From assembly GCA_947176745.1 (NCBI GenBank), contig CAMWRV010000003.1:1-64000 (forward strand): a stretch of 64,000 bases of DNA, read 5' to 3'. Positions 173-5,293 of this stretch are shown in pieces. Below the pieces are notes generated by a model. It was not told the origin of the DNA, searched no databases, and saw only the letters and a list, made by a program, of their open reading frames with translations. How positions within the stretch are numbered: the first letter of the stretch is position 1; each line of letters begins with the position of its first letter. Source of the stretch: an uncultured Muribaculaceae bacterium (GTDB lineage Bacteria > Bacteroidota > Bacteroidia > Bacteroidales > Muribaculaceae). A program made the position numbers and the translations under genes.

Positions 173-199
173 CAAATGAGACGTCAAGAGAGACGCTCA

Positions 200-260
200 G
201 CCCATAGGCAACATCGGTCAATCGACTTGAATCGCTTTTCACACATCAAGTCCTATGGGC
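200..260 (+). other. Structured spacer hairpin in the tRNA array
   Basis: The tRNA-Ile to tRNA-Tyr spacer contains two nested stems: 200-208 pairs with 252-260 (9 bp) and 224-230 pairs with 246-252 (7 bp), sharing base 252. Their 3' arms are continuous. No tRNA fold or ORF fits. It may be a precursor-processing structure or a small RNA; no function can be assigned from sequence. Confidence 0.45.
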
Positions 261-264
261 ATTT

Positions 265-399: not shown

Positions 400-471
400 G
401 TCCCTGTCGTCTAACGGTTAGGACGCGAGATTTTCATTCTCGAAATCCGGGTTCGATTCCCGGTGGGGGTA
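400..471 (+). tRNA. tRNA-Glu(TTC), phage-encoded
   Basis: The anticodon stem CGAGA/TCTCG with loop TTTTCAT gives anticodon TTC. The T arm CCGGG/CCCGG is perfect. The acceptor stem GTCCCTG/TGGGGGT contains several G-U pairs, so it is weaker than a typical host tRNA-Glu but still foldable. Confidence 0.9.
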
Positions 472-477
472 CTATTA

Positions 478-529
478 GGACTGGTAACTCAGGGGTAGAG
501 CGTCGGTAGTTCGATTCTATCCCAGTCCG
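478..529 (+). tRNA. tRNA-like gene lacking the anticodon arm
   Basis: This 52-nt segment has a perfect 7-bp acceptor stem (478-484 with 522-528), discriminator G529, a 3-bp D stem (488-490 with 498-500) and a normal T arm (505-509 with 517-521, loop TTCGATT). Only the bases GTC (502-504) lie between the D and T arms, so anticodon and variable arms are absent. It sits in register between tRNA-Glu and tRNA-Trp with 6- and 9-base spacers. It is either a tRNA pseudogene with an internal deletion or a non-decoding tRNA mimic. The lost identity cannot be read, though discriminator G would suit Asn. Confidence 0.75.
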
Positions 530-538
530 CAAATACAC

Positions 539-610
539 AAGTCGTTGGCTGAGAGGTCAGGCGATGGTCTCCAAAACCATTTTACGGAGGTTCGATTCCT
601 TCACGGCTTG
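539..610 (+). tRNA. tRNA-Trp(CCA), phage-encoded
   Basis: Acceptor AAGTCGT pairs with ACGGCTT (one G-U). The perfect anticodon stem ATGGT/ACCAT holds loop CTCCAAA, giving anticodon CCA. T loop is TTCGATT and the discriminator is G, as usual for bacterial tRNA-Trp. The D stem is weak (3 bp). Confidence 0.88.
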
Positions 611-1804: not shown

Positions 1805-2563
1805 ATGAACACAAAACTAAAACACTATGTCGGCACCAAGCATATCTTGGCAATGCCGATGACCAAGGGCGAAGCCTATCAGAAAGGTATTTGTCGCTTT
1901 CAGTTTAACGACGATCAAGAACGAGAAGCCTTCGTTCAGAGTGACGATTACAAAACACCCGGTTATAAAGTCGTTTATCAGGATGGTTACGAATCGTGGT
2001 CTCCAGCAGACGTGTTTGAAGCGGCTTATAAAGTCGCTGAAACCGCACTCGATAGAGTAAATATTGAGGATGAAGAGTTGCGAGACAGAACCGACAAACT
2101 CGGACAATTTATTTTCAATAAGAACGACGGGGCCGACTATCAGTCTCTCCCACTCGGAACACGAGCAATGCTCTTAGCTCAATTCCATGCAATGTGCTCA
2201 TACTCTGTACTCCTGTCTCTCCGTCAGAGCTGCATGGAAGGTGGCGTGGATTGCCATCCTTGTGGCCTGAGTTTTGAACAGATCCTTCCACTTCTCAAAG
2301 AGGGCTTTGCTGTTCGCCGGGCAGGTTGGAACGGCAAGGACCTGATGGTTTTCAAGCAGGTTCCAGCCCGTATTTCTGCTGAAGTGATTCCCAATATGCA
2401 GTCACTTCCCAATGAGGCCAAACGTCTGGTTCTCGCTCATGGTGATCACATCGACTATGTTTCTCAGTGCCTCATCTTCAATCCGGCATTTGGAGAAGCA
2501 AATTCATGGGCTCCGTCTATCTCAGATATTTTTGCAAATGACTGGGAGCTCGTATTGGAATAA
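1805..2563 (+). CDS. Phage protein with C-terminal Tad2-like (DUF2829) domain
   Basis: A 252-aa protein with three apparent parts. Residues 7-75 form an N-terminal module common in gut-phage proteins (YVGTK, PMTKGEA, GYESWSPADVFEAAY). Residues 85-142 look like an alpha-helical hairpin (RTDKLGQFIF then LLAQFHAMCSYSVLLSLR). Residues 155-252 match the DUF2829/Thoeris anti-defence 2 pattern: SFEQILPLLKEGFAVRRAGW, NGKDLMVFKQVP, HIDY, SWAPSISDIFANDWELV. Stand-alone Tad2 proteins sponge the cyclic-nucleotide signal of Thoeris immunity; that this fused copy does so is inferred. A CxxC pair (150-153) lies just before the domain. Confidence 0.75.
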   Translation: MNTKLKHYVGTKHILAMPMTKGEAYQKGICRFQFNDDQEREAFVQSDDYKTPGYKVVYQDGYESWSPADVFEAAYKVAETALDRVNIEDEELRDRTDKLGQFIFNKNDGADYQSLPLGTRAMLLAQFHAMCSYSVLLSLRQSCMEGGVDCHPCGLSFEQILPLLKEGFAVRRAGWNGKDLMVFKQVPARISAEVIPNMQSLPNEAKRLVLAHGDHIDYVSQCLIFNPAFGEANSWAPSISDIFANDWELVLE

Positions 2564-2683: not shown

Positions 2684-5293
2684 ATGGTAAAAGGATTAAA
2701 AGCGCCGACTGGCTTAACCATAGATTTTAAGCCATCCCCCAGACAATATGAAATGTGGAAACTGCTTCAACCAAATTGTTGCCCTCATTGTGGCGGTGAA
2801 ATTGAAGTAGTACAATCAGGACTTGATGAAAGAGGTAAACCAAAATATGCACCTCAGTGTAAAAAATGTAATACTCGTCACCTTCCCAGATTTATTTTGG
2901 GCGGTGGTGCTGCCGGTGGTGGCAAGGCTATATCATTAGACGATAATGTCTTAACGCCTATGGGTTTTAAGAAAATGCGCGACATTCAATTGAATGATGT
3001 TGTATCAACTCCTGATGGCGGTTTAGCACATGTTATAGCAATTCATCCTCAGGGTAAAATTCAATTATGGGAACTCACAACAAACGATGGAATATCAGTT
3101 AAATGCTGTGATGACCATATTTGGAAAGTCAATGTTCACGACAAATCTGGTGCGCATGAAGTCATTACAGATACAAAGCATTTGAGGGCATGGTTGAGCG
3201 AAGGTAGAAAAATTAGCATATCTCTAACCAAACCAGTTTATACTTCCACTAATTATGGTTCTTTCATTCATCCATATATCATTGGCTTCTTAATAGGCGA
3301 TGGTGGCTTAACTGGGAATATGACATTTACCACAGCAGACACGGAGTTAGTTGATAAAATTAAAAGCCTTGTTCCTGATGGATGTACGGTTCATAAAGTA
3401 CCATCCAGTAAATATGGATATGTAATAAAAAATAAGTACACTGATGCTAAAGGTCATCCATATTCGCCTTTCAAAAATGAAATTATTCGTTTAGGACTAA
3501 ATTGTAGTAGCCACGACAAGCGCATCCCTAAGTTTATTTTATCAGGTGAATATAGTGTAAGGCTAAGCTGCGTACAAGGATTGATGGATTCTGATGGGTA
3601 TGTTGATAAGAGGGGGCATTGTAGTTTTTCGGTGTGTAACGAAGGCTTAGCAAGAGACTTCTTGTTTTTGGTTAGAAGTCTTGGAGCAAAAGCTACAATA
3701 AACAGTGGCGTCAAGTATTGCTATTATAAAGGTGAAAAGAAATCTGCAATTGCTTATACCGTGCGATTTAATTGCGAACATAAAGCGGACTTTGTAACCT
3801 TGCATCGCAGAAAGGAAAGAATACCTGAAAAGGTAAAAGTTGCTCCAAGGTTGATAACACATATCAAGGATGCTGGTATTCAAGAGGCTCAATGTATATC
3901 TATTGACACTGACGATGGTTTGTTTATTACAAATGATTATCTACCTACACACAACTCGTATGTAGGTAGTTGCTGGATTATAATGAGCTGTATCAGGTTC
4001 CCCGGCAATCGAGCAGTTGTGGCCCGTAAAACATTGAAGGCACTGAAGGGCTCTACATTTAATACAATCAAGTTCGTTCTCAGGCAATGGGGTCTTGAAC
4101 AGGACGTTCACTACAAGATCAACAATATAGAAGGTCTTGTTACTTTCTGGAATGAGAGTACGATTTCTCTGATTGAGTTGGAAGACCTGCCTTCTGATCC
4201 TGAATTTGAGCGTCTTGGTTCTAACGAATGGTCTTGTGGGTTCATCGACGAGTGCTCTCAGGTTTCAGAAAAGGCTGTCGAAATCTTATATAGTCGCCTT
4301 CGTTGGTTGGTTCCGGAATATTGGGGTTATCCTCGATTGCTGATGACAACCAACCCATCAATGAATTGGGTCCGGTCAAGATTTGTGCAAGATAATGACG
4401 GCAACCCAGTTGTTCTGGCTCCACAAGATGAATTTGTTCGCTTTTCAGTCTTTGATAATCCATGTACGTCATTTGTGGCCACATATCGTGATGCTCTTGA
4501 CAAGCTTTCAGACCCGGCAGCTCGTCATCGCCTTCTATATGGTGTTTGGGACTGGGTAGGTGAGAATGAGGCAGCCGCTTATTGGAATTTCGAAGGTAGC
4601 ACTCATCTGGTAGATAATCTTCGAGAGAAGGTTTATGATCCGCTGAAGCCCCTGATAATCTCATGGGACTTTAACGTAGCTCCGTTCATGTCAACATTGG
4701 CCCTCCAGGTGGATTATGACAATAAAAAGCTATATGTGTTGGAAGAGGTTATCGGACGCCCGGAGGATAAGGAGAATAACACGCCCAAGCTCGCCGACAA
4801 AATCTCCAACAAATACTTAACCGAAAGCCACATGGGTGGCCTATTAGTAACAGGAGACCCAGCTGGTCTGGCCCGGTCAACACAGACTGAGGATGGCGTA
4901 AACAACTATACTATTATTCTCAATCACTTGCACCCATCTCTCAGAGCGCAAAAGAAACTGTTGACCAAGCAGCCCCCTCAGGTTACACGTCTGGAATTTA
5001 TCAACAATCTGTTCAACGGATATGATGGTTGGGAGATTCTGATAGATATGAGATGCCGACGATTAACTGAAGACCTCATATATCAAAAGAAGAATGAGGA
5101 TGGTACCAAGAATAAGGCAAAGATTACCGATCCGAAACTTGGTATGAAATATGAGAAATACGGCCACATGTCCGATGCACTGGATTACGCAATATGCTTG
5201 TTGTTATCAAATCCGTGGAAGAAATTTCAGCATATAGGCAGTAGTGGTATAGCAACTGTTAACACGCCAATATACGGCCATTTTGACTATTGA
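2684..5293 (+). CDS. Terminase large subunit interrupted by an intein
   Basis: 869-aa precursor; removal of residues 82-424 leaves a 526-aa TerL, a normal length. The N-terminus has a zinc-ribbon-like pair CPHC (33-36) and CKKC (59-62), unusual for TerL. Walker A reads GGGAAGGGK then S after splicing, with the intein exactly between K81 and S425. Walker B is GFIDEC in the C-extein. The RNase H-like nuclease acids are in SWDFN, TGDPAG and DALDYA (about D831). The protein drives ATP-dependent DNA packaging and cuts concatemers. It ends 1 base before the adaptor gene. The ATPase cannot work until the intein splices. Confidence 0.93.
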   Translation: MVKGLKAPTGLTIDFKPSPRQYEMWKLLQPNCCPHCGGEIEVVQSGLDERGKPKYAPQCKKCNTRHLPRFILGGGAAGGGKAISLDDNVLTPMGFKKMRDIQLNDVVSTPDGGLAHVIAIHPQGKIQLWELTTNDGISVKCCDDHIWKVNVHDKSGAHEVITDTKHLRAWLSEGRKISISLTKPVYTSTNYGSFIHPYIIGFLIGDGGLTGNMTFTTADTELVDKIKSLVPDGCTVHKVPSSKYGYVIKNKYTDAKGHPYSPFKNEIIRLGLNCSSHDKRIPKFILSGEYSVRLSCVQGLMDSDGYVDKRGHCSFSVCNEGLARDFLFLVRSLGAKATINSGVKYCYYKGEKKSAIAYTVRFNCEHKADFVTLHRRKERIPEKVKVAPRLITHIKDAGIQEAQCISIDTDDGLFITNDYLPTHNSYVGSCWIIMSCIRFPGNRAVVARKTLKALKGSTFNTIKFVLRQWGLEQDVHYKINNIEGLVTFWNESTISLIELEDLPSDPEFERLGSNEWSCGFIDECSQVSEKAVEILYSRLRWLVPEYWGYPRLLMTTNPSMNWVRSRFVQDNDGNPVVLAPQDEFVRFSVFDNPCTSFVATYRDALDKLSDPAARHRLLYGVWDWVGENEAAAYWNFEGSTHLVDNLREKVYDPLKPLIISWDFNVAPFMSTLALQVDYDNKKLYVLEEVIGRPEDKENNTPKLADKISNKYLTESHMGGLLVTGDPAGLARSTQTEDGVNNYTIILNHLHPSLRAQKKLLTKQPPQVTRLEFINNLFNGYDGWEILIDMRCRRLTEDLIYQKKNEDGTKNKAKITDPKLGMKYEKYGHMSDALDYAICLLLSNPWKKFQHIGSSGIATVNTPIYGHFDY
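2927..3955 (+). other. Class 3 intein with LAGLIDADG homing endonuclease
   Basis: A 343-aa in-frame insertion (precursor residues 82-424). It begins with Ala, not Cys or Ser, and ends PTHN followed by Ser. The class 3 WCT signature is present: Trp147 in DHIWKV (block B), Cys404 in QCISID (block F) and Thr422 in PTHN (block G). In class 3 inteins the block F Cys starts splicing. The middle carries two LAGLIDADG motifs, IIGFLIGDG (D206) and GLMDSDG (D304), so a DOD-type endonuclease looks intact. Its expected cleavage site is the intein-free Walker A coding sequence of related terminases. Confidence 0.88.

What the first reader, a model, noticed from the sequence alone, without database searches (positions are those of the whole stretch)
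478..529. Phage tRNA gene with perfect acceptor and T arms but no anticodon arm
The sequence shows a 52-nt tRNA-like gene in register within a phage tRNA array, with an intact 7-bp acceptor, D arm, T arm and discriminator, yet only three bases where the anticodon and variable arms should be. Deletion between short GTCG repeats could create it, but the maintained stems (including complementary pairs) are notable. A non-decoding tRNA mimic could act as a decoy for tRNA-targeting host nucleases, or for CCA-adding or modifying enzymes. That role is inference.
Basis: partly seen in the sequence, partly recalled or inferred. Interest (0 to 1): 0.75.

Follow-up and report, generated by a model that had tools for sequence, protein, structure and literature searches.

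The report
Eroded phage tRNA-Phe lacking anticodon arm
This 52-base gene is a prophage phenylalanine tRNA gene that lost its anticodon arm through one 20-base slip between two 9-base repeats, so it is most likely a dying gene, although the search also turned up dozens of similarly armless tRNA-like genes in unrelated phages whose stems look conserved.

Summary
Window 478-529 is a 52-nt tRNA-like gene with 7/7 acceptor and 5/5 T-stem pairs, a slightly broken D stem (A10.C25), and only GTC between the D and T arms. An intact relative shows its origin. The same-genus prophage G004 has, after an identical tRNA-Glu, a 72-nt tRNA-Phe(GAA). Removing exactly 20 nt between its 9-bp direct repeats GAGCGTCGG gives the short form. 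One other phage (IMG/VR L017) has the same deletion plus one substitution. Four linked sites on both sides group the window with intact G004 and L017 with another intact phage, so the deletion probably arose twice. The apparently compensatory T-stem change is one 11-nt tract identical to the phage's tRNA-Met and tRNA-Cys T arms. The G discriminator is consistent with a second deletion running into tRNA-Asn. The predicted lowest-energy fold of the window copy is a rod, not a tRNA shape. I judge it an eroding, non-decoding tRNA-Phe; a decoy role is unsupported but not excluded. A generic search found a wider set: over 50 distinct phage elements without an anticodon arm but with an 8-9-nt linker and covarying stems. 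I found no paper describing them. The window copy (3-nt linker) falls outside that range.

The parts
478..529 (+). 52-nt tRNA-Phe(GAA) deletion derivative without anticodon arm (whole element)
478..484 (+). acceptor stem 5' strand GGACTGG, pairs 7/7 with 522-528
487..501 (+). D arm ACTC-AGGGGTA-GAGC; outermost pair is A10.C25 (G10-C25 in relatives)
498..506 (+). GAGCGTCGG: deletion scar, the single remaining copy of the 9-bp direct repeat that flanks 11 nt (20-nt period) in the intact relative
502..504 (+). GTC, all that links D and T arms (can be read as G46-U47-C48)
505..521 (+). T arm GGTAG-TTCGATT-CTATC, 5/5 pairs with one G.U
508..518 (+). AGTTCGATTCT tract identical to the T arms of phage tRNA-Met and tRNA-Cys in relatives; accounts for all four T-arm differences from tRNA-Phe
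522..528 (+). acceptor stem 3' strand CCAGTCC
529..541 (+). discriminator G and trailer GCAAATACACAAG, matching the 3' end of tRNA-Asn and its spacer in L017: likely junction of a second deletion (loss of His, Met, Cys, Asn genes)
400..472 (+). tRNA-Glu(TTC) directly upstream; identical in the intact relative L002
539..611 (+). tRNA-Trp(CCA) directly downstream

Best explanation
The element is an eroding, non-decoding remnant of a prophage tRNA-Phe(GAA) gene. A single replication-slippage deletion between the two 9-bp repeats GAGCGTCGG, formed by the D-stem 3' strand plus start of the anticodon stem and by the variable loop plus start of the T stem, removed 20 nt: the anticodon arm and most of the variable loop. 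Shown: the intact ancestor-like gene, the exact deletion, its presence in a second phage, and tract-like later changes. Inferred: slippage as the mechanism, two separate deletions, lack of function, and that any transcript is either degraded or a by-product of array processing.
For: In G004 (same genus) the identical tRNA-Glu is followed by an intact 72-nt tRNA-Phe(GAA) scoring 68.4 bits. Deleting 20 nt between its 9-bp repeats gives the L017 short form with 1 substitution and the window form with 6. That repeat is the longest direct repeat among 35 distinct tRNA genes of these phage arrays, the next being 7 bp. Four sites flanking the deletion (one in tRNA-Glu, two in the spacer, one at position 66) group window with L002-intact and L017-short with L016-intact, so recurrence at a hot spot is the simpler history. 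The window array lacks His, Met, Cys, Asn and Ser genes present in L016 and L017 and carries the Asn 3' end behind the element. The four T-arm changes fall in one 11-nt tract shared with Met and Cys tRNAs. D-stem mismatch, non-tRNA minimum fold and a tRNA score of only 27.4 bits. A 3-nt linker with paired stems was found only in this phage lineage; the four other viral hits with that spacing were chance. Parallel case at another phage locus: a streptococcal tRNA-Phe gene is intact in Javan565, armless in L157, scrambled in Javan577 and reduced to its 3' part in phiJH1301-1.
Against: Acceptor and T stems are still perfectly paired. The same short form exists in a second phage that folds as a tRNA-like minimum (-19.1 kcal/mol) and scores above the tRNA cut-off (35.1 bits). 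Only four informative sites support two deletions; a shared deletion moved by recombination cannot be excluded. No expression data.
Confidence: 0.75

Rival explanations
1. A retained non-decoding tRNA mimic: the 52-nt RNA is processed by RNase P and CCA-adding enzyme and acts as decoy or sponge for a tRNA-binding host factor, or as an RNase P cut site within the array transcript.
For: Stems kept; the same short form in L017; a broad set of phage tRNA-like elements lacking an anticodon arm with strong covariation (264 both-side-changed cells against 75 shuffled; syntenic subset 14 against 4.0); such elements also in a cultured phage (Danklef).
Against: Window linker is 3 nt while paired elements of the wider set have linkers of 7 nt or more, mostly 8-9; D-stem mismatch and rod-like minimum fold; changes explained by tract transfer and a second deletion; the array is losing genes.
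Confidence: 0.15
2. Assembly or sequencing artefact: the 20-nt repeat unit was collapsed.
For: A repeat pair exists in the intact relative.
Against: A 9-bp repeat is shorter than ordinary assembly k-mers; the same deletion is in an independent metagenome contig, L017; the window copy also has other differences from the intact gene.
Confidence: 0.03
3. A split or rearranged tRNA whose anticodon arm is supplied elsewhere (trans-splicing, permutation).
For: None beyond the missing arm.
Against: Intact Phe exists as one continuous gene in relatives and the loss matches a simple direct-repeat deletion; no second piece of the gene in G000, where the intact Phe query matches only 478-506.
Confidence: 0.02

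Closest known systems
tRNA gene fragments and deletion pseudogenes in prokaryotic and phage tRNA sets (PMC9897764)
   Same: Non-canonical partial tRNA gene, recognisable by its tRNA parts, produced by DNA rearrangement
   Different: Fragments described there come mostly from element integration; here an internal direct-repeat deletion removes one arm and leaves the rest paired
Undetermined tRNAs of cultured phages: Polaribacter phage Danklef (tRNA-OTHER, 58 nt, MT732458)
   Same: Acceptor, D and T arms present, no anticodon arm
   Different: 8-nt linker TTTAGGTC, full D stem, stable tRNA-like minimum fold, stand-alone position
mascRNA/menRNA (RF01684), tRNA-like RNA with reduced anticodon arm
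   Same: tRNA-like end structure with little or no anticodon arm
   Different: Only 11.3 bits against cut-off 42.5; eukaryotic, part of a long RNA (own knowledge)
Minimal mitochondrial tRNAs lacking D and/or T arms (PMC7609411)
   Same: Shortened tRNAs
   Different: They keep the anticodon arm and decode; here the opposite arm is missing

Membership tests
Canonical tRNA gene (RF00005) | acceptor, D, anticodon and T arms with an anticodon | tested here: not met
   no anticodon arm; 27.4 bits, under the cut-off of 29; ARAGORN negative
tRNA-Phe(GAA) deletion derivative | intact orthologue in the same array position, differing by a direct-repeat deletion | tested here: met
   L002 1581-1652 after identical tRNA-Glu; exact 20-nt deletion between 9-bp repeats
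Phage armless tRNA-like elements (set assembled here) | linker of about 7-10 nt between D and T arms | tested here: not met
   3-nt linker; the only paired 3-nt cases are window and L017
Phage armless tRNA-like elements (set assembled here) | paired acceptor and T stems and a 4-bp D stem | tested here: inconclusive
   acceptor 7/7 and T 5/5, but D stem 3 of 4 pairs and a non-tRNA minimum fold
mascRNA-like RNA (RF01684) | score above family cut-off | tested here: not met
   11.3 against 42.5 bits
YrlA Y RNA (RF02553), tRNA mimic | score above family cut-off | tested here: not met
   12.7 bits at 446-501 against 69
tRNA decoy against anticodon nucleases | expressed RNA that titrates a host factor | not testable with these tools
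   no expression or interaction data

The most novel reading that the evidence does not exclude
Phages carry a widespread, selected set of non-decoding tRNA-like RNAs without an anticodon arm (57-60 nt, 8-9-nt linker, covarying acceptor and T stems), arising repeatedly from ordinary phage tRNA genes, and the window's 52-mer is a young member kept for the same role. I put the first half, that many of these elements are selected RNAs, at about 0.5; the probability given is for the whole statement including the window element.
Probability: 0.15. Interest if true: 0.8.

Novelty: new member of a known kind. Interest (0 to 1): 0.42.

Why it matters
By itself the element shows how a phage tRNA gene can lose exactly its decoding arm in one step while looking preserved, because the arms left behind were functional shortly before. 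More widely, the generic search shows that such armless tRNA-like genes are recurrent in phages, keep covarying stems across unrelated contigs, and already sit in GenBank as 'undetermined' tRNAs, for example in cultured Polaribacter phage Danklef. That makes a concrete question testable in an isolated phage: are they processed, CCA-tailed RNAs with a non-decoding job, or a common stage of tRNA loss?

Tried and rejected
Exact 52-mer in IMG/VR: no match. Close relatives by DNA in 397 family genomes: only G004; the short-form pattern occurred only in the window. TerL-based search: 14 viral relatives, most contigs without the array or ending before it. Fixed 3-nt-linker scan: besides L017 only chance hits without acceptor pairing. 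Rfam classes mascRNA and YrlA rejected on score. Half of the genome-contig hits contain N runs inside the arm and were discarded as gaps. No single neighbouring gene accounts for the armless set. INPHARED searches from L117 and L034 (DNA) and the L117 ORF: no match; L164: no match. The Microbacterium EA5 'tRNA-Undet' genes turned out to have a shortened arm that still holds TGC in the loop, so they are not armless. Rhodococcus phage Takoda's undetermined tRNA is 75 nt, not armless. Ten literature searches found no paper on phage tRNA-like RNAs lacking the anticodon arm; the library is open-access only, so absence is weak evidence.

Full report
WHAT IS THERE. The window is the start of contig C3 of a 2.55-Mb, 91-contig genome. 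Positions 1 to about 7,900 are the end of a prophage: a tRNA array at 99-1072, small ORFs, a terminase large subunit, and a tyrosine-type integrase next to a tRNA-Gln(CTG). The sequence at 478-529 reads GGACTGG TA ACTC AGGGGTA GAGC GTC GGTAG TTCGATT CTATC CCAGTCC G. Acceptor and T stems are fully paired. ARAGORN misses it and Rfam's tRNA model gives 27.4 bits, with the whole anticodon arm skipped.

WHERE IT CAME FROM. A search of 111 same-genus genomes gave one relative, G004. There an identical tRNA-Glu is followed by an intact tRNA-Phe(GAA) of 72 nt, which scores 68.4 bits. The gene contains the 9-bp direct repeat GAGCGTCGG twice with a 20-nt period, the longest direct repeat among 35 distinct tRNA genes of these arrays; the next is 7 bp. 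Removing one period gives GGACTGGTAGCTCAGGGGTAGAGCGTCGGTGGTTCAAATCCATCCCAGTCCA. The viral contig L017 (IMGVR_UViG_3300013414_000442, 214-265) has exactly this with one substitution, at the same place of its array. The window has it with six substitutions.

ONE DELETION OR TWO. Over tRNA-Glu, spacer and tRNA-Phe, the window agrees with intact L002, and L017 agrees with intact L016, at four sites: one in Glu, two in the spacer, and position 66 on the far side of the deletion. Two separate slips at the same repeat is therefore the simpler history. A shared deletion with later recombination remains possible, since these arrays are mosaic.

THE COMPLEMENTARY CHANGE IS NOT INDEPENDENT SUPPORT. The window's T-arm differences (G52A, A57G, A59T, C62T) lie inside one 11-nt tract, AGTTCGATTCT, which is identical to the T arms of tRNA-Met and tRNA-Cys in L017 and of tRNA-Met in L002. 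One tract transfer explains the paired change. The discriminator G and the following GCAAATA.ACAAG match the end of tRNA-Asn in L017, and the window array lacks the His, Met, Cys and Asn genes that lie between Phe and Trp there. So the element has also been trimmed by a second deletion, and the array is shrinking. Both steps are inferences from comparison, not observed events.

A WIDER SET. Among distinct elements with at least 6/7 acceptor and 4/5 T pairs, linker lengths were 3 nt: 2 (window and L017); 7: 3; 8: 27; 9: 20; 10: 4; 11: 5; 12: 2; then a second group at 15-18 nt, some with a mini-hairpin in place of the arm. Lengths 19-22 were not scanned and the second scan is incomplete, so only the peak at 8-9 and the sharp lower edge are firm. 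In 52 elements with linkers of 7-10 nt, 98.8% of cells pair (67.8% shuffled, 40-48% slid), with 264 both-side changes against 75. This set was pre-selected for pairing, so the percentage is inflated; the variety of pair types is not explained by that selection alone. Six elements, five of them directly behind homologous small Cys-rich ORFs and one (L046) behind a similar Cys-rich ORF, show 14 both-side changes against 4.0 (0 of 500 shuffles). More than half of all elements found have no other tRNA within 3 kb. The same pattern in 84,980 bacterial and archaeal species genomes gave only four N-free, well-paired hits. A cultured phage, Polaribacter phage Danklef, carries one (58 nt, stable tRNA-like fold) annotated as an undetermined tRNA; the describing paper simply lists one tRNA (PMC8776804).

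These elements also arise from ordinary phage tRNAs. At one streptococcal phage locus the tRNA-Phe(GAA) is intact in Javan565, armless in L157, scrambled in Javan577 and reduced to its 3' part in phiJH1301-1. So armless forms can be a stage of decay, and covariation in the pooled set could partly reflect the different parent tRNAs rather than selection after the loss. The six-element family behind Cys-rich ORFs is the best evidence for maintenance after loss.

DOES THE WINDOW ELEMENT BELONG. Its 3-nt linker lies below the lower edge of the wider set, its D stem is broken and its predicted fold is not tRNA-like. No other viral contig had a paired 3-nt-linker form apart from L017, and none of 397 family genomes had one apart from the window. 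I therefore class it as a deletion derivative in decay (0.75), with a retained mimic role at 0.15.

LIMITS. No reads, no expression data, no metagenome scans. The open-access paper library held nothing on phage tRNA-like RNAs without an anticodon arm, which is weak evidence of novelty.

Noticed in passing
IMG/VR loci L027-L073 and L098-L216; e.g. L034:6685-6742, L048:1908-1965, L117:9877-9934: More than 50 distinct tRNA-like elements without an anticodon arm (mostly 56-60 nt, linker 8-9 nt) in unrelated phage contigs, with covarying acceptor and T stems; often stand-alone between genes.
   Followed up: partly
L032, L054, L117, L175, L214, L046 (elements as): Armless tRNA-like element 4-12 nt behind a small Cys-rich ORF in six phage contigs, with compensatory changes in acceptor and T stems.
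   Followed up: partly
L230:1501-1558 (Polaribacter phage Danklef_1, MT732458): 58-nt armless tRNA-like gene annotated 'tRNA-OTHER Undet', directly behind a terminator-like hairpin; the sister phage Freya lacks the stretch.
   Followed up: partly
L236:27037-27106(-) and L238-L242 (Microbacterium EA5 phages): tRNA-Undet gene with a shortened anticodon arm that still holds TGC; its linker is identical in six phages while T-stem pairs change on both sides.
   Followed up: partly
window 2684-5293: Terminase large subunit interrupted at the Walker A motif by an intein-like insert with LAGLIDADG homing endonuclease domains (Pfam hits).
   Followed up: partly
window 1805-2563: Protein with Tad2-like (Thoeris anti-defence 2-like) and crAss001_48-related domains next to the tRNA array.
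   Followed up: no
window 174-264: Spacer between tRNA-Ile and tRNA-Tyr folds into a strong nested hairpin (z -5.03); no Rfam match.
   Followed up: no
L048:1866-1903: Match to abiF RNA (RF03085, 39.9 bits, above cut-off) directly 5' of an armless tRNA-like element.
   Followed up: no
L080, L081, L084, L092, L093, L096, L097 (genome contigs): NN gaps fall inside anticodon arms of otherwise normal tRNA genes in several MAG contigs, mimicking armless tRNAs.
   Followed up: no
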